From the NCBI GenBank assembly GCA_017424205.1, contig JAFPAS010000237.1, forward strand, positions 1 to 5,120: a stretch of DNA of 5,120 bases. The letters run 5' to 3'. Below the pieces are notes generated by a model. The model saw only the letters and a list, made by a program, of their open reading frames with translations, ran no database searches and was not told where the DNA came from. Source of the DNA: Prevotella sp. Its GTDB lineage: Bacteria > Bacteroidota > Bacteroidia > Bacteroidales > Bacteroidaceae. Both the position numbers and the translations under genes were made by a program. Below are positions 1 to 5,120 of this stretch, piece after piece (position 1 is the stretch's first letter; each line of letters opens with the position of its first letter).

Positions 1-38
1 ATACAAAATAATTCTGTAACTTTGTAATCGGTAGTCAT
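1..38 (-). CDS. IS982-family transposase, N-terminal fragment
   Basis: The start codon is at 38-36 on the minus strand. The 12 complete codons, MTTDYKVTELFC, match the full transposase at 4103-5017. The rest runs off the window start. It is partial because of the window boundary, not because of a visible mutation. In a circular reading it is simply the start of the full gene at the other end. Confidence 0.85.
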   Translation of the reverse strand, partial: MTTDYKVTELFC

Positions 39-122
39 ATTAAATATTCTTGTAACTAATTGTTTTTCACCTATAAAGGTACAAAATATTTATGAGACTA
101 CCAACTTTTTATGAACAAAATC

Positions 123-139
123 TTATCCCGAACTGGGGT
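123..139 (-). repeat. IS982-family terminal inverted repeat (transposase-upstream end)
   Basis: Read on the minus strand this is ACCCCAGTTCGGGATAA. It matches the repeat at the other IS end (3987-4003, ACCCCAATTCGGGATAA) at 16 of 17 positions. The two adjacent bases, AT, are also shared by both ends, so the exact IS boundary could be 139 or 141. Confidence 0.88.
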
Positions 140-140
140 A

Positions 141-148
141 TAACTTTG
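141..148 (+). promoter_or_regulatory. Candidate -7 box of the sigma-factor promoter, abutting the IS end
   Basis: TAACTTTG at 141-148 fits the Bacteroidota -7 consensus TAnnTTTG perfectly. It would start transcription near 155, about 70 bases before the ECF sigma ATG. No TTTG-like -33 box exists 19-21 bases upstream, because that position now lies inside the IS (around 118-121, AAAT). The native -33 box was probably separated from this element by the insertion. Promoter activity after insertion is uncertain. Confidence 0.45.
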
Positions 149-163
149 TATATTGTAATTGTA

Positions 164-190
164 GTTTCGCACGTCTGCGATGTGCGAAAC
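164..190 (+). promoter_or_regulatory. Perfect 9-bp hairpin in the sigma-factor leader
   Basis: GTTTCGCAC (164-172) and GTGCGAAAC (182-190) are perfect inverted repeats around a 9-base loop. A nested alternative pairs TCGCA (167-171) with TGCGA (176-180) and is mutually exclusive with the long stem. The structure is not followed by a T run, so it does not look like an intrinsic terminator. It could be a leader RNA structure or a protein-binding palindrome upstream of the ECF sigma gene. Its role is unknown. Confidence 0.55.
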
Positions 191-224
191 TTGTGCTTTA
201 AGAGGTATATAATTCTTGTCTTTT

Positions 225-851
225 ATGAGTGTAAGGAGTAAAAGGACGTTTCAATCGAACCAGGAACTGTGGCAAGCTTTTTTGTCTTCAGACAAGGAAG
301 CGTTCGCCTGCTTGTTTGAAGAGTATGCCGATGCCATGTATGCCTATGGATGCAAAATGACGTCTGATGCCGAATTGGTAAAAGACGCCATCCAGGATGT
401 TTTTGTAAAGTTGTATAAAAACAGGCTGTCGTTGCGTGAAAATGTAATGATAAAAGGATATCTTTTTGTGACCCTTAAACACACTTTGCTAAACCTGCTA
501 CATACTCATGTCACGCTCTCTTTGGAAGATGGAGACGGCGTGCGTTTCAAGATAGACCTGCTCTCGCAAAGACTTTATGAAGAAGACTCGTCTTGCGGAT
601 GTTGTGAGGAAGAAGAGACGAGGCAACAACTGTTAAAGGCTTTGGACGAACTTACAGACCGGCAGCGCGAGGCTATATATCTACATTATATACAAGAAAT
701 CCCGTTGAATGAGCTTTCTGTACTGTTGGACATGAACTATCAATCAACGAGAAATCTTATACATCGTGCCATGACGAAGTTGCGTCAGCACATTCAGCCT
801 ACCTCTTACGCGAGTATACCATTGCTTTTGGTCCAATACCTTTCAGAGTAA
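225..851 (+). CDS. ECF-type RNA polymerase sigma-70 factor (FecI-like, Bacteroidota)
   Basis: This 208-aa protein has the two-domain ECF layout. Sigma region 2 lies at about residues 25-92, with the polymerase-binding stretch ending in DAIQDVFVKLYKNR. Region 4 lies at about 135-190, with the helix-turn-helix LTDRQREAIYLHYIQEIP followed by LSVLLDMNYQSTRNLIHRAMTKLR. It would direct core polymerase to a small set of promoters. The linker carries an acidic patch with a Cys-Gly-Cys-Cys cluster (residues 124-127). The hydrophobic tail SIPLLLVQYL is common in Bacteroidota ECF factors. No FecR-like anti-sigma or SusC/SusD gene is adjacent, so it is an orphan here. ATG 225 was chosen; an in-frame TTG at 216 has a purine-rich AAGAGG about 10 bases upstream and would add three residues. 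Its 3' end overlaps the convergent GH65 gene by 53 bp, and an IS lies directly upstream. Confidence 0.9.
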   Translation: MSVRSKRTFQSNQELWQAFLSSDKEAFACLFEEYADAMYAYGCKMTSDAELVKDAIQDVFVKLYKNRLSLRENVMIKGYLFVTLKHTLLNLLHTHVTLSLEDGDGVRFKIDLLSQRLYEEDSSCGCCEEEETRQQLLKALDELTDRQREAIYLHYIQEIPLNELSVLLDMNYQSTRNLIHRAMTKLRQHIQPTSYASIPLLLVQYLSE

Positions 852-2835
852 GGGCTTTCCAGTGCGGAGGCAGCACGCCTTGCTTTTCTTGAGTTATGCC
901 GCCGTCTGTGATGGCAAGTCCGCCGAAGCCCATCATCACGGCCTGCAAGACGCCTCCTGCGCCAGTTATGAAGTAGGGGTTTGTGCCTCCTTTTGTCTCT
1001 GCTATCACTCTGAACGGTGGGTTGAGGTTAAGTATGTAGGCGTCTTTGAAGAAGTGTGCGGCTTTGTCGGCATTTCCAAGACGTGAGTACAAGAGGGAGA
1101 AGATGGCTTGTGTCATGGCTGGTGTGTTCTTTTCCGGCACTTTTGTCTCGTAATAAGCCAGGTCTTTCTCTATCTGGTGTGGGTCTGTGATGAGTCCCAA
1201 CGGATAGGCGAGAAGATTTACATCTGCCTGTTTTATGTTGGCTCCGTCGTATTGTGAGTGTTCGCGTGTCACGCCGTCAGGAAATGAAAGCACGACAATT
1301 TTCTCCGCTATCTCGTCCCATGCCGACGTTACGGGTTCTCCCAACAGTGCTGCGGCTTGTGAGGCTGCTGCAAGATTCTGTTTCGCCACTCCGTTTGTAA
1401 AGGCATTGTCGTCTACGTTTTCTGCCCATTCGTCGGCAGCCACCACGTTGCGTATGTGGCAAGTGCTGCCATCTGCATCTTTCTCTACCCTGCTGAGCCA
1501 GAAGTCGGCGGTAGCCTTCAAGATGGGATAGCCTTTCTCTCTCAGCCATGTTTTGTCTTGTGTGACGCGGTAATAGTTCCATGCCGCCATGGCAACACAT
1601 CCGGTGATGTGGTGTTCAAAGGTTCCGGTAAGTGCCCATACAGGTGTTTCTTCAAAGCCGCTATCTGCACTTTCCCAGGGGAACATGGCTCCTGAGAAAC
1701 CATGTTCGAACGCGTTCTCTTTGGCTGCCTGTAAGCGGTTGTACCTGTACTCTATCATCGATTTTGCTAATTGTGGCTTTAACATCAGCAGGGCTGGGAA
1801 TATCCATGTGTCAGCGTCCCAGAAGACATGCCCGTTGTAGCCTAAGCCGGACAGGCCCATCGGCGAGATGGAGAGTTCGGATCCTTCGCGTACAAAGGAG
1901 TAAAGGTGGTATATCATGTTGTGGATGTCTTGTTGTGCCTGTGCGTCGCCGTCTATTATAATGTCGCTGCTCCACAGGTCGTCCCATAAAGACAGGTGGC
2001 GCGCCATAAGGCGGTCGTAGCCTTCAAGACAGGCGAAGACTGTGAGGCGCTCTGTTTCGTTCATCGGATCGGGGTGATGGGCTGATGTCAGTGTTGAGCC
2101 TACTATGCAGAAACGATATGTTTCTCCCTTTCGCAGCTTGCGCGAGAAGCTTGTCTGGTGGCTATTACTGTTGTGTGTTGCGTGTATGACGCGTGGCTCT
2201 TCGCCAGCTTTCTCTGGGAACATGAAAGCCGATGAGGCACATACGGTGAGTCGTCCTGTCGGACTTTTGGCTTGTGTGGTCAGCAGTTTTATGGCTGCAT
2301 GTCTGCGGTTTATCTCGTTGTAGAACATCCGACCGTCTCGAAAGGCGTCAGGCGTTTCTTGAGTGTTGACGGCAGCAATAGTGATGTCTGCCTTTGGCTC
2401 TACTTCTACTACCATCATGGCGCAATAAGGCAACTGTCTCAGTGCGAGATATGAACAGGTAATGTCTGCCTTGTCGGCGTATGTGAAGTGTGAGGTGAAT
2501 GTCGCCTTCTTCATGTCCAGGGTCTGTGTGAAGCCGGAAATGTTGTTGCGGTTTATACGATTGCCGTCTATTGATATAGAGCCGTTAAGCATGTTGAAGC
2601 CGTTAAGGAAGTTGCTTACACGTCCACGCCCGTATTTGTCGTAGCTTCCTGCCAGCACCACGTTGTTTGTGCGTAGCGGTTCTGGCGACGACACGATGCC
2701 AAGCATGCCGTTGCCGACAGTCACTCCGTAGTAATTGTCTGTCCGGACATCTGAAACAGTGATTTTCCAAGGGTCTTGTCCCCATAGGGAGGTAGATAGG
2801 AATAGTAGTCCGATTAAAAGATTTGTTTTTCTCAT
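799..2835 (-). CDS. Secreted GH65 family glycosidase, probable kojibiose-type alpha-glucosidase
   Basis: This 678-aa protein has a signal peptide at about 1-19 (basic start, hydrophobic core LLIGLLFL, cleavage near WG/Q) and no lipobox cysteine, so it is probably periplasmic. An N-terminal beta-sandwich region (about 25-270) precedes an alpha/alpha-barrel. GH65 hallmarks are GLSGLGYNGHVFWDADTW (327-344), GAMFPWESADSGFEETP (382-398) and DEWAENVDDNAFTN (468-481). E469 aligns with the family's general acid. E613 (AETKGGTNP) sits where hydrolases carry their general base; a phosphorylase would have a phosphate pocket there. The 144-residue gap equals the spacing I recall for Glu472/Glu616 of the Flavobacterium johnsoniae kojibiose hydrolase. 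It should be an inverting alpha-glucosidase releasing glucose, probably from alpha-1,2 linkages; the substrate is inferred. The length is normal and the frame intact. No SusCD or other glycan gene is visible. Transcription probably starts near 3160, giving a long leader. Confidence 0.88.
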   Translation of the reverse strand: MRKTNLLIGLLFLSTSLWGQDPWKITVSDVRTDNYYGVTVGNGMLGIVSSPEPLRTNNVVLAGSYDKYGRGRVSNFLNGFNMLNGSISIDGNRINRNNISGFTQTLDMKKATFTSHFTYADKADITCSYLALRQLPYCAMMVVEVEPKADITIAAVNTQETPDAFRDGRMFYNEINRRHAAIKLLTTQAKSPTGRLTVCASSAFMFPEKAGEEPRVIHATHNSNSHQTSFSRKLRKGETYRFCIVGSTLTSAHHPDPMNETERLTVFACLEGYDRLMARHLSLWDDLWSSDIIIDGDAQAQQDIHNMIYHLYSFVREGSELSISPMGLSGLGYNGHVFWDADTWIFPALLMLKPQLAKSMIEYRYNRLQAAKENAFEHGFSGAMFPWESADSGFEETPVWALTGTFEHHITGCVAMAAWNYYRVTQDKTWLREKGYPILKATADFWLSRVEKDADGSTCHIRNVVAADEWAENVDDNAFTNGVAKQNLAAASQAAALLGEPVTSAWDEIAEKIVVLSFPDGVTREHSQYDGANIKQADVNLLAYPLGLITDPHQIEKDLAYYETKVPEKNTPAMTQAIFSLLYSRLGNADKAAHFFKDAYILNLNPPFRVIAETKGGTNPYFITGAGGVLQAVMMGFGGLAITDGGITQEKQGVLPPHWKALTLKGIGPKAMVYSRKR

Positions 2836-3080
2836 AATACTGATATGTTAGTCTATTTGATTATATCGTTCTGTTGTCTTTTCCCATGTCTTAATAGCGT
2901 TGTTAGGGTACTTACATAAACAATACAAGCGAACTCTTAAATTGTACTCACCAGTCTTTACTTTTTTACGGATTTAACAGAGGAACGTTAGGTGTGCTAT
3001 TCTATGATGTAACGACGCTTTACTTTGAAGCTGATTATGAGGTGGTGACACGATGACGAATAAACCGTATATATGCGCGT

Positions 3081-3108
3081 ACACCCCACGAATCACTTCG
3101 TAGGGTGT
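3081..3108 (-). promoter_or_regulatory. Strong hairpin in the predicted GH65 leader (possible terminator or attenuator)
   Basis: ACACCCCACGAA (3081-3092) pairs with TTCGTAGGGTGT (3097-3108) over 12 positions around the 4-base loop TCAC. The one imperfect position is C-A on the plus strand but a G-U wobble in minus-strand RNA. The hairpin is therefore better formed in a transcript running toward GH65. It is not followed by a U run in that direction, so a classical intrinsic terminator is unlikely. It lies about 55 bases after the predicted start of the leader and could be a leader structure or mark the end of an upstream transcript. Confidence 0.5.
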
Positions 3109-3168
3109 GCCAACTAATAACTAACTTTTACTTTTGTGGTTTACGTAATTTCAATATGACTAACACTG

Positions 3169-3200
3169 CAAAGGTAGGTGGTTTAGTTCACCTCCGCAAT
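3169..3200 (-). promoter_or_regulatory. Bacteroidota-type promoter reading toward GH65
   Basis: On the minus strand the -7 box is TACCTTTG (3176-3169), a perfect TAnnTTTG. ATTG (3200-3197) is a near match to the -33 consensus TTTG with a 20-base spacer, within the usual 19-21. A 5-bp palindrome AGGTG/CACCT (3176-3180 and 3189-3193) lies between the boxes. The start point would be near 3160, which implies a leader of about 325 bases to the GH65 ATG. It could also serve an unrecognised small RNA. Confidence 0.6.
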
Positions 3201-3217
3201 ACCCAAATTCCGGTATT
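3198..3217. promoter_or_regulatory. Dyad overlapping the -33 box, candidate regulator site
   Basis: AATACC (3198-3203) and GGTATT (3212-3217) form a 6-bp inverted repeat around 8 bases. The core TACCCAA-AT-TCCGGTA (3200-3215) has the 7-2-7 spacing known for NarL-type regulators, although only the first half resembles the NarL heptamer TACYYMT. It sits 10 bases past the stop of the LuxR/NarL-type gene and overlaps the -33 region of the GH65 promoter. It may instead be a weak hairpin at the end of the regulator transcript. No T run follows. Confidence 0.35.
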
Positions 3218-3226
3218 TGACTTAGG

Positions 3227-3832
3227 TTACTCTTGAACCTTTACCTCGCTCAGCTCTACCAACTTATTTACTATGGCATAGATAGTCAAGCCGGCAGCCG
3301 AGTGTATCTGTAGCTTGCGCGTTATATTCTTACGGTGGGTCATTACGGTATGCACAGAGATAAACAGTTTCTCGGCTATCTCTTTATTGGTCATGCCGCG
3401 GACAATGCAGCCCACTATCTCTTTTTCGCGCTGACTGAGGGCGTCTTGGTCGGGCTCCTCTTCATCGGCTATATTTAGCAGTTCGGTAATCTTCTTTTCG
3501 AGCGATGCCATGTCATCGAACAGCGTGACACGTTCATCGTAACCCTTTAGCTGACTGCTGTCTACCATAGAGCAAAGCAGCGAAACCAGCTTTACATCAT
3601 GCTTATAGCACTGACGGAAAGCGTCTACATCAAACCATCCCTCCAGCTGCGGATTCACAATCAATATCTGCGGAGTATGCATCTCCATGCAGTGACGGAT
3701 GCCGTCTTTAGAAGTTACCTCTACAACCTCTACCTCCATATCGGGCAAGCGCTTTAGCACAGACACCAGCCCGCTACGCACTATGACCGACGACTCGGCC
3801 ACAGCTATTAAAATCTTATCTTGAAACTTCAT
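3227..3832 (-). CDS. LuxR/NarL-type transcriptional regulator with degenerate receiver domain
   Basis: This 201-aa DNA-binding regulator has an N-terminal receiver-like domain (about 1-120) and a C-terminal LuxR helix-turn-helix (about 132-191, LSQREKEIVGCIVRGMTNKEIAEKL then SVHTVMTHRKNITRKL). In a working receiver the first strand ends in two acidic residues; here it reads ILIAVAES. The phosphoacceptor aspartate position reads ILIVNPQ, with Asn60 instead of Asp. It is therefore probably not controlled by phosphorylation. ATG 3832 was chosen over an upstream in-frame ATG at 3874. A purine-rich AAAGAGGG lies about 8 bases before it, and the receiver fold begins right there. It overlaps the hemerythrin gene by 17 bp, which suggests translational coupling. 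Such pairs occur in Bacteroides; targets are unknown. Its native promoter is lost behind the IS, so transcription may come from the transposase gene, which points the same way. Confidence 0.88.
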   Translation of the reverse strand: MKFQDKILIAVAESSVIVRSGLVSVLKRLPDMEVEVVEVTSKDGIRHCMEMHTPQILIVNPQLEGWFDVDAFRQCYKHDVKLVSLLCSMVDSSQLKGYDERVTLFDDMASLEKKITELLNIADEEEPDQDALSQREKEIVGCIVRGMTNKEIAEKLFISVHTVMTHRKNITRKLQIHSAAGLTIYAIVNKLVELSEVKVQE

Positions 3833-3986
3833 TGTTGTTATCCCTCTTTTCAAGTTCCATAATAGCAGGGACAAACAAGTAATCTTCTACCCGGTTGTGC
3901 GATGCCAAATCTTCTTCACAGCTAAAAATATCGAACAACGTAGCGTTAAGCAGTCGGTTGTCGCCGTTGGCCGGATAATATTTAAT
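3816..3986 (-). pseudogene. Hemerythrin-domain protein, 3' remnant cut by IS982-family element
   Basis: The last 56 codons of a hemerythrin-type gene remain, beginning IKYYPANGDNRLLNATLF. The motif HNRVED (His30, Asp35 of the remnant) fits the final His-x4-Asp iron-ligand pair of hemerythrin domains and is followed by YLFVPAI. From memory, intact Bacteroides homologues run about 230-250 aa, with an equivalent KYYPA segment near the C-terminus. Roughly three quarters of the protein, including the other iron ligands, is therefore missing. The IS end at 3987 falls exactly between codons. The open frame continues about 14 codons into the IS before a stop, with no start codon. It overlaps the LuxR gene by 17 bp; in intact form the pair would plausibly be a diiron O2/NO/iron-responsive module. 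The N-terminal part is not in this window. Confidence 0.82.
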
Positions 3987-4003
3987 ACCCCAATTCGGGA
4001 TAA
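3987..4003 (+). repeat. IS982-family terminal inverted repeat (transposase-downstream end)
   Basis: ACCCCAATTCGGGATAA matches the opposite end (minus strand of 5102-5118) at 16 of 17 positions. The boundary is supported independently because the hemerythrin reading frame resumes with ATT AAA TAT TAT immediately outside it. Confidence 0.88.
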
Positions 4004-4102
4004 AATAGCGATTAGTTGCATGTTAAGACAGATACATGAATCCTCTTCCCATGCCATCAGACATGGGCTATATATAAAGAATCGAAAGAGATTATTCTGT
4101 CC

Positions 4103-5017
4103 TTAGAACAATGTAAGTTGCTTCGTGTCTTCGATGCAGTATCCTTGCAATGCCTTTGGCTTGTTATCAAAGAAACAATATGCTCCCAAGGCAGAAATAA
4201 GGTTCATGATAAAGTTGCTTACAGATCTATGGCGTGAATGTACAATCTGTGCCGTATTCTTCAGCATGTCGTTAATGGTTTCGATAATGTATCTCTTGCG
4301 CAGCATCATTCTGTCATAGAATGGCATCAGCTTGTTTTTCATGTTTACGCGCAACCCTGTCACCAGCTGTATTCCATCCTCAAAGAGGAAGTCAAACAGC
4401 TTTTGCGAAATATAGCCTTTGTCAGCGAACAGCTTGCCATACAAACGTTTAGCAAGAACCTTGAACACATTCGGGTCCTTGTCGCTGACATTTGCACCAG
4501 TAAGTACAAACGCTATTATCTCGCCTCTGTCATTGCACGCAAGGTGGAGCTTAAAGCCATGGCACCAACCCATAGTTCCTTTTCCGTCAGTGGCAATTCC
4601 CTTGAATACCTTATTGGCATATCTCCTGAGATTATGGCATACGGGTATCATCGTGGAATCAACGAATGTTATGCCGGTACATCTTCCGAAAGCTCCCAGA
4701 TTAAGGAAGAACATGAGCTGGAAGAACACGCGGCTTTCCAACTCCACAAAGCGGTTGTACGACACGGCTTTCGGAAAATAAGACTTCATCGTACCCTTAA
4801 TGAAGAACAGGTAGTAGTGCTTGAAATTGCGGAATGTACCAAAATGAAAATACAACAGAATGGTCATGATTTCACTGTCGGACAACGATGCTGCACGCCG
4901 TCTACGCTTCACTCCGCTATTGTCTTCCAGCAAATTTCCTGCATTTTCTGCATCAAAATGTTTGCAAAACTCGTCTATAATACAAAATAATTCTGTAACT
5001 TTGTAATCGGTAGTCAT
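4103..5017 (-). CDS. IS982-family DDE transposase
   Basis: This 304-aa transposase catalyses cut and strand transfer at the ends of its own element. The N-terminal region (about 1-100) is the DNA-binding part, with a basic KRRRR run at 37-41. The catalytic DDE triad can be placed at D120 (ITFVDST), D199 (LFADKGY) and E246 (RYIIETINDMLKN), with the HGFKLHLACNDRGEI stretch (153-167) typical of IS982/IS4-like cores between them. The frame is intact with no frameshift, so the element may be active. The start ATG 5017 lies about 100 bases inside the IS end, behind a plausible Bacteroidota promoter. After its stop, 116 bases remain to the IS end without a good terminator. Transcripts may therefore read into the hemerythrin remnant and the LuxR regulator on the same strand. 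Confidence 0.93.
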   Translation of the reverse strand: MTTDYKVTELFCIIDEFCKHFDAENAGNLLEDNSGVKRRRRAASLSDSEIMTILLYFHFGTFRNFKHYYLFFIKGTMKSYFPKAVSYNRFVELESRVFFQLMFFLNLGAFGRCTGITFVDSTMIPVCHNLRRYANKVFKGIATDGKGTMGWCHGFKLHLACNDRGEIIAFVLTGANVSDKDPNVFKVLAKRLYGKLFADKGYISQKLFDFLFEDGIQLVTGLRVNMKNKLMPFYDRMMLRKRYIIETINDMLKNTAQIVHSRHRSVSNFIMNLISALGAYCFFDNKPKALQGYCIEDTKQLTLF

Positions 5018-5052
5018 ATTAAATATTCTTGTAACTAATTGTTTTTCACCTA

Positions 5053-5083
5053 TAAAGGTACAAAATATTTATGAGACTACCAA
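5053..5083 (-). promoter_or_regulatory. Candidate transposase promoter
   Basis: On the minus strand TACCTTTA (5060-5053) is a 7-of-8 style match to TAnnTTTG, and TTGG (5083-5080) is a weak -33 box with a 19-base spacer. This would give a leader of about 30 bases to the transposase ATG at 5017. The same pair exists in the left copy at 74-104. It points into the IS, not outward. Confidence 0.45.
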
Positions 5084-5101
5084 CTTTTTATGAACAAAAT
5101 C

Positions 5102-5118
5102 TTATCCCGAACTGGGGT
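5102..5118 (-). repeat. IS982-family terminal inverted repeat (transposase-upstream end, right copy)
   Basis: On the minus strand this reads ACCCCAGTTCGGGATAA, the partner of 3987-4003. The window ends two bases beyond it. Confidence 0.88.
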
Positions 5119-5120
5119 AT

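What the first reader, a model, noticed from the sequence alone, without database searches (positions are those of the whole stretch)
1..5120. Identical 141-bp ends: circular or tandem 4,979-bp unit, or IS-bounded segment
Bases 1-141 equal 4980-5120 exactly. 141 is also a k-mer size used by common metagenome assemblers, so this could be a closed assembly cycle. Without replication or mobilisation genes, a real circle would more likely be an IS-mediated excision product (one IS plus adjacent DNA, as known for IS26 translocatable units) or a collapsed tandem amplification than a plasmid. The break lies only two bases beyond the IS end, which also fits an assembly branch where two IS copies share AT and then diverge.
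Basis: partly seen in the sequence, partly recalled or inferred. Interest (0 to 1): 0.7.

Follow-up and report, generated by a model that had tools for sequence, protein, structure and literature searches.

The report
Assembly loop closed through an IS982
This 5,120-base contig begins and ends with the same 141 bases, and the overlap is probably an assembler's closed loop through one insertion sequence that likely sits as two copies around an ordinary stretch of gut-bacterial chromosome, so the contig is not by itself evidence of a plasmid or DNA circle.

Summary
Bases 1-141 equal 4980-5120 exactly; the window is a whole contig (C225), and no other pair among 104 readable contigs of its bin (125 fetched of 319) overlaps end to end. 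The repeat is the last 139 bp of an IS982-family element (3987-5118) plus AT. The rest looks chromosomal: a convergent ECF sigma/GH65 pair known from other Bacteroidaceae, and a LuxR-type regulator beside a hemerythrin-domain gene cut by the IS. In the 20 best-matching relatives, homology stops at 3986/3987, the IS end. The two IS flanks come from different loci and share no target duplication. That fits a segment between two direct IS copies, which collapses to a cycle in an assembly graph; 141 is MEGAHIT's largest default k (recalled). No replication or mobilisation gene was found among the four large ORFs. A real circle or tandem array is possible but untestable without reads. The regulator locus looks Phocaeicola-like, not Prevotella-like, so the contig may be mis-binned or hold transferred DNA. 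Low interest; a known kind of structure.

The parts
1..141 (+). first copy of the terminal repeat: last 139 bp of the IS plus AT
   Evidence: 100% identity; IS end
4980..5120 (+). second copy of the terminal repeat
3987..5118 (-). complete IS982-family insertion sequence, 1132 bp, ACCCC...GGGGT ends
   Evidence: homology of relatives to the left flank stops at 3986/3987
4103..5017 (-). IS982-family transposase, 304 aa
   Evidence: NF033520 234.2 bits, cut-off 130; PF13612
3985..4006 (+). IS inverted repeat, left (two flanking bases included)
   Evidence: 91% complementary to 5099-5120
5099..5120 (+). IS inverted repeat, right (two flanking bases included)
225..851 (+). ECF-type RNA polymerase sigma factor, 208 aa
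   Evidence: TIGR02937 72.4 bits, cut-off 42.9; Pfam sigma regions 2 and 4
799..2835 (-). GH65 enzyme, kojibiose hydrolase by NCBIfam, 678 aa, convergent with the sigma gene
   Evidence: NF053734 1110.6 bits, cut-off 800; PF03632; neighbour pair in 5 of 9 sigma loci
2991..3042 (+). relic (about 17 codons) of an IS1634-family transposase between the GH65 and regulator loci
   Evidence: 90% DNA match to G046; that relative's protein scores NF033559 383.2 bits; frames
3227..3832 (-). LuxR-type (GerE) response regulator, 201 aa
   Evidence: PF00196; orthologous locus in the 20 loci compared
3816..3986 (-). C-terminal stub of a hemerythrin-domain gene, cut at the IS end
   Evidence: the stub itself has no Pfam hit, the intact relative in L206 has PF01814; stop position read from the sequence

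Best explanation
The identical 141-bp ends are likely the k-mer overlap of an assembly-graph cycle, most likely closed through an IS982-family element that would flank a 3.85-kb chromosomal segment as two direct copies. A repeat-segment-repeat arrangement (IS, sigma/GH65/regulator segment, IS) collapses in a de Bruijn graph to one IS path joined to the segment at both ends. If the outer flanks are thin or pruned, the assembler reports segment plus one IS, with one k-mer repeated at the ends. Shown: the exact repeat, the complete IS, the different loci at its two ends, the gene broken at the IS boundary, and the lack of a target duplication. Inferred: the second IS copy, the pruned outer flanks and the assembler. 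The genes inside look like ordinary chromosomal genes; any effect of the IS on the sigma gene is untested.
For: The repeat length, 141, equals MEGAHIT's largest default k (recalled). In PMC11572364 (passages) two MEGAHIT assemblies of one mitochondrial sequence differ by an exact 141-bp duplication that the authors found in no read and call a likely artefact. The cut lies two bases past the IS end; 13 of 53 related copies would diverge at exactly that base. In the 20 regulator/hemerythrin loci compared, alignment to the window ends at 3986 or 3987, and the missing N-terminal half does not lie across the IS, where the sigma upstream region is. The flanks share only AT, whereas 25 of 53 complete related copies have exact 5-8 bp duplications against 21 of 2756 mismatched pairs. 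Segment genes look chromosomal elsewhere: regulator proteins 99-100% identical occur on contigs up to 361,358 bases, and sigma lies beside GH65 in 5 of 9 sigma loci. Among other contig ends of the bin, three share exact runs of 79, 79 and 99 bp with other contigs, also default k values (recalled). Repeat elements often fall at short-read assembly breaks in Prevotella copri (PMC7283042, passages).
Against: The contig runs through the left IS end without a break, although two full copies with distinct outer flanks should branch there too. No outer flank was found in the bin: the only other IS match is a 73% piece at C122:1-129, and the missing hemerythrin half was not found (one search found only the stub; one search found nothing and has no positive control); the bin is only 61.65% complete. 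The assembler and k are not documented here. Other contig ends share runs of 15-24 (six ends), 34, 49, 95 and 125 bp, which do not fit the k list, and control points 300 bp inside the contigs also share runs (nine points, 15-105 bp), so the 79/79/99 values are only suggestive. Lack of a target duplication is weak evidence: 28 of 53 complete copies also lack one of 5 bp or more.
Confidence: 0.62

Rival explanations
1. A real tandem array or excised circle of one IS982 plus 3.85 kb, formed by recombination between two direct IS copies, like an IS26 translocatable unit.
For: The closed sequence has exactly that form: one IS plus adjacent DNA, flanks from two loci, no target duplication. No outer-flank contig was found in the bin. 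IS26 units form circles and tandem arrays (PMC11102541, abstract; PMC7986276, passages).
Against: 141 equals an assembler k (recalled); the cut sits at the IS edge, where a featureless circle could be cut anywhere in 4979 positions; no replication gene among the large ORFs; the IS is IS982, not IS6 family. The listings (20 shown of 1,108 papers; 3 papers) showed no title on IS982 circles. Even for IS26, a 2021 review says such a circle had been formally observed in a single case (PMC7986276, passage).
Confidence: 0.2
2. A single IS copy at a rearranged junction (IS-mediated deletion or inversion), with the loop closed by a spurious graph edge between the IS end and the segment start.
For: No second full IS copy in the bin; 28 of 53 complete relatives lack a target duplication of 5 bp or more, so rearranged copies may be common.
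Against: Needs a false junction exactly at an IS end, yet the base after the IS there is A, as in 47 of 53 related right flanks.
Confidence: 0.13
3. A small plasmid or circular phage genome.
For: Closed 4979-bp circle by sequence identity. IS982 relatives (64-78% DNA identity) occur on three plasmid records of Segatella and Prevotella.
Against: The four large ORFs are sigma factor, GH65, LuxR-type regulator and transposase; PHROGs gave only generic sigma and regulator families for two of the three non-transposase proteins; smaller ORFs were not scanned. No phage match in near mode. Three plasmid records match the segment, over at most 34% of it, in the GH65 or regulator part. Exact 31-32-base junction patterns are absent from viral contigs.
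Confidence: 0.03

Closest known systems
MEGAHIT 141-bp duplication artefact (PMC11572364, passages seen)
   Same: exact 141-bp direct duplication in an assembled sequence
   Different: there the copies are adjacent in a mitochondrial sequence; here they are terminal and lie in an IS, and the assembler is not documented
IS982 family insertion sequences of Prevotella/Segatella relatives
   Same: transposase model, inverted ends, ACCCC...GGGGT termini as in near relatives
   Different: this copy lacks the 5-8 bp target duplication seen in 25 of 53 relatives
IS26 translocatable units / pseudo-compound transposons
   Same: one IS plus adjacent DNA as a closed unit with flanks from two places
   Different: IS982, not IS6 family; chromosomal metabolic and regulatory cargo; no evidence of a circular molecule

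Membership tests
IS982 family IS | IS982-family DDE transposase | tested here: met
   NF033520 234.2 bits against cut-off 130
IS982 family IS | terminal inverted repeats | tested here: met
   91% complementary over 22 nt
IS982 family IS | target duplication at this copy (a property of a clean insertion, not of the family) | tested here: not met
   flanks share only AT; 25 of 53 relatives have 5 bp or more, 28 do not
Translocatable unit (IS26-like) | IS6-family transposase | tested here: not met
   transposase is IS982 family
Translocatable unit (IS26-like) | circular molecule with one IS | not testable with these tools
   no reads
Assembler k-mer loop (MEGAHIT k=141) | terminal overlap equal to k | tested here: met
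   141 bp exactly; the k list is recalled
Assembler k-mer loop (MEGAHIT k=141) | assembly made with that program | tested here: inconclusive
   contig ends share 79, 79, 99 but also 34, 49, 95, 125 and shorter runs; internal control points share runs too
Plasmid | replication or mobilisation gene | tested here: not met
   the four large ORFs scanned are sigma factor, GH65, LuxR-type regulator and transposase; smaller ORFs not scanned

The most novel reading that the evidence does not exclude
A real IS982-bounded translocatable unit: a circle or tandem array that carries a GH65 glycosidase, its ECF sigma neighbour and a Phocaeicola-like regulator between Bacteroidaceae genera on a Prevotella-type IS.
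Probability: 0.1. Interest if true: 0.6.

Novelty: already known. Interest (0 to 1): 0.15.

Why it matters
Short-read contigs with identical ends are easily taken as circles. Here the repeat length and the position of the cut point to an IS-bounded graph cycle, so the contig should not be listed as a plasmid without reads. If a real IS982 circle were shown, it would extend IS26-type amplification to another IS family in gut Bacteroidales.

Tried and rejected
Simple insertion of one IS into a plasmid: rejected as the main reading because the flanks share no target duplication and one flank is a gene cut at the IS end whose missing half is not on the other side. The duplication argument alone is weak (28 of 53 relatives also lack one).

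Phage, plasmid or IMG/VR relatives of the circle: none found for the whole unit. The two IS relatives in viral contigs are 74% and 64% identical as proteins. Rfam: nothing at gathering thresholds.

Composition as a test of mis-binning: inconclusive. C225 fits the bin (31 of 70 contigs of 3.3-7 kb are further from the mean); the segment alone fits less well (11 of 44 contigs of 3-4.8 kb are further).

A single donor for the whole segment: not found. The sigma query gave no match in 61 genomes of g43 at E <= 1e-30 (no positive control), although the regulator locus resembles that genus; sigma/GH65 neighbours are in genus g42. None of the 8 GH65 loci from other genomes of the bin's genus showed the sigma gene beside it.

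A near-identical IS in other family members: among 251 genomes, 7 including G000 match at E <= 1e-100, the best other at 80%.

Looking for the missing hemerythrin half or a second full IS copy in the bin: not found.

Literature: searches for the MEGAHIT overlap of circular contigs gave one useful paper and otherwise nothing; (listing) led to PMC7283042.

Full report
Observation. Bases 1-141 and 4980-5120 are identical, and the window is the complete 5120-bp contig C225 of a 319-contig, 61.65%-complete bin. Among 104 readable contigs of that bin (125 fetched of 319; 21 read only N) plus C225, the only exact end-to-end overlap of at least 20 bp is C225 with itself. The repeat is real in the sequence and unusual in this bin.

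Anatomy. 3987-5118 is a complete IS982-family element: transposase NF033520 at 234.2 bits and inverted ends. I placed its borders with related copies: of 81 loci had both ends and at least 10 bp of flank, and 25 of these 53 have an exact 5-8 bp duplication directly outside the ends, against 21 of 2756 mismatched flank pairs. L030 and L032 share one right flank, so the 53 are not all independent. Between the IS ends lie an ECF sigma factor (225-851), a convergent GH65 enzyme (799-2835; kojibiose hydrolase by NCBIfam, 1110.6 bits), a relic of about 17 codons of an IS1634-family transposase (2991-3042), a LuxR-type regulator (3227-3832) and the C-terminal stub of a hemerythrin-domain gene (up to 3986).

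The segment looks chromosomal in kind. Sigma and GH65 are convergent neighbours in 5 of 9 sigma loci, all five in genus g42, and in none of the 8 GH65 loci from other genomes of the bin's own genus. Eleven longest-contig lengths occur in both lists of 120 proteins, which I take as the same contigs. Regulator proteins 99-100% identical occur on hundreds of contigs (418 and 375 for the two largest entries), up to 361,358 bases. In genus g43, 54 of 60 genomes match the segment. In the 20 best loci, taken for comparison, alignment begins at 3063-3084 and ends at 3986 or 3987; weaker rows end somewhat earlier or cover only part. In the three of these loci whose ORFs I listed (L206, L207, L209), the hemerythrin gene is longer and open and a different gene, not GH65, lies on the other side; in L206 these carry PF01814 and the cysteine-rich domain PF02754.

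What joins the ends. The left IS flank is the broken hemerythrin gene; the right IS flank is the sigma upstream region. They share only AT, so this is not one clean insertion, although 28 of 53 complete relatives also lack a duplication of 5 bp or more. Two direct IS copies bounding the segment, or recombination between them, give exactly these two junctions. The contig ends two bases past the IS; 13 of 53 related copies diverge from this flank after exactly two bases, so a branch there is plausible. The left IS end did not break the contig, which speaks against the simplest two-copy graph. One possible reason, inferred: in the near relatives L030 and L032 the alignment starts only at IS base 98, while the last 141 bp have 1-2 mismatches, so other variants may share the right end but not the left.

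Assembler. 141 is MEGAHIT's largest default k (recalled). PMC11572364 (passages) reports an exact 141-bp duplication between two MEGAHIT assemblies, absent from the reads. Other contig ends in this bin share exact runs of 79, 79, 99, 34, 49, 95 and 125 bp with other contigs, and six ends shorter runs of 15-24. The first three are default k values (recalled), the rest are not, and nine control points 300 bp inside the contigs also share runs of 15-105 bp, so this is suggestive only. PMC7283042 (passages) notes that high-copy elements often fall at breaks of short-read Prevotella copri assemblies.

Whose DNA. G000 falls in a genus that includes Prevotella bivia (inferred: G010 contig of 1,982,184 bases, against record NZ_JH660660.1). 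Across the order, 29 of 295 genomes including G000 match at E <= 1e-45; the best other is in g43 (71%), then 56% or less. Proteins named Phocaeicola are 71-74% identical. Against one simple donor: the sigma query found nothing in 61 g43 genomes (no positive control), and the closest named sigma protein is 'uncultured Bacteroides sp.' (73%). The IS is 97-98% identical at DNA level, over 1036-1133 bases, to copies in three Prevotella records (L030-L032), while in a sample of 251 family genomes the best other copy is 80%. The contig is thus mis-binned or holds transferred DNA, or the bin's species differs from its sampled kin; composition does not decide.

Verdict. A graph cycle through an IS982 copy is the most likely reading (0.62), a real tandem array or circle is second (0.2), a single rearranged IS with a spurious closure third (0.13), and a plasmid or phage least likely. 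Reads would settle it.

Noticed in passing
window 2991-3042: Relic of an IS1634-family transposase sits where the GH65 locus meets the regulator locus, suggesting an older IS-linked join of two loci.
   Followed up: partly
window 3227-3986: Regulator/hemerythrin locus resembles Phocaeicola-like genomes, not the sampled members of the bin's own genus; possible mis-binning or transfer.
   Followed up: partly
window 164-190: Hairpin (9-bp arms GTTTCGCAC/GTGCGAAAC) between the IS end and the sigma gene; role unknown (fold).
   Followed up: no
L005 1-129 (G000:C122): A second, 73%-identical IS982-like end lies at a contig start in the same bin, again an assembly break within an IS.
   Followed up: no
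L011 667-1653: In this genome of the bin's genus, hemerythrin and LuxR domains are fused in one protein, whereas the three g43 loci listed have two adjacent genes.
   Followed up: no
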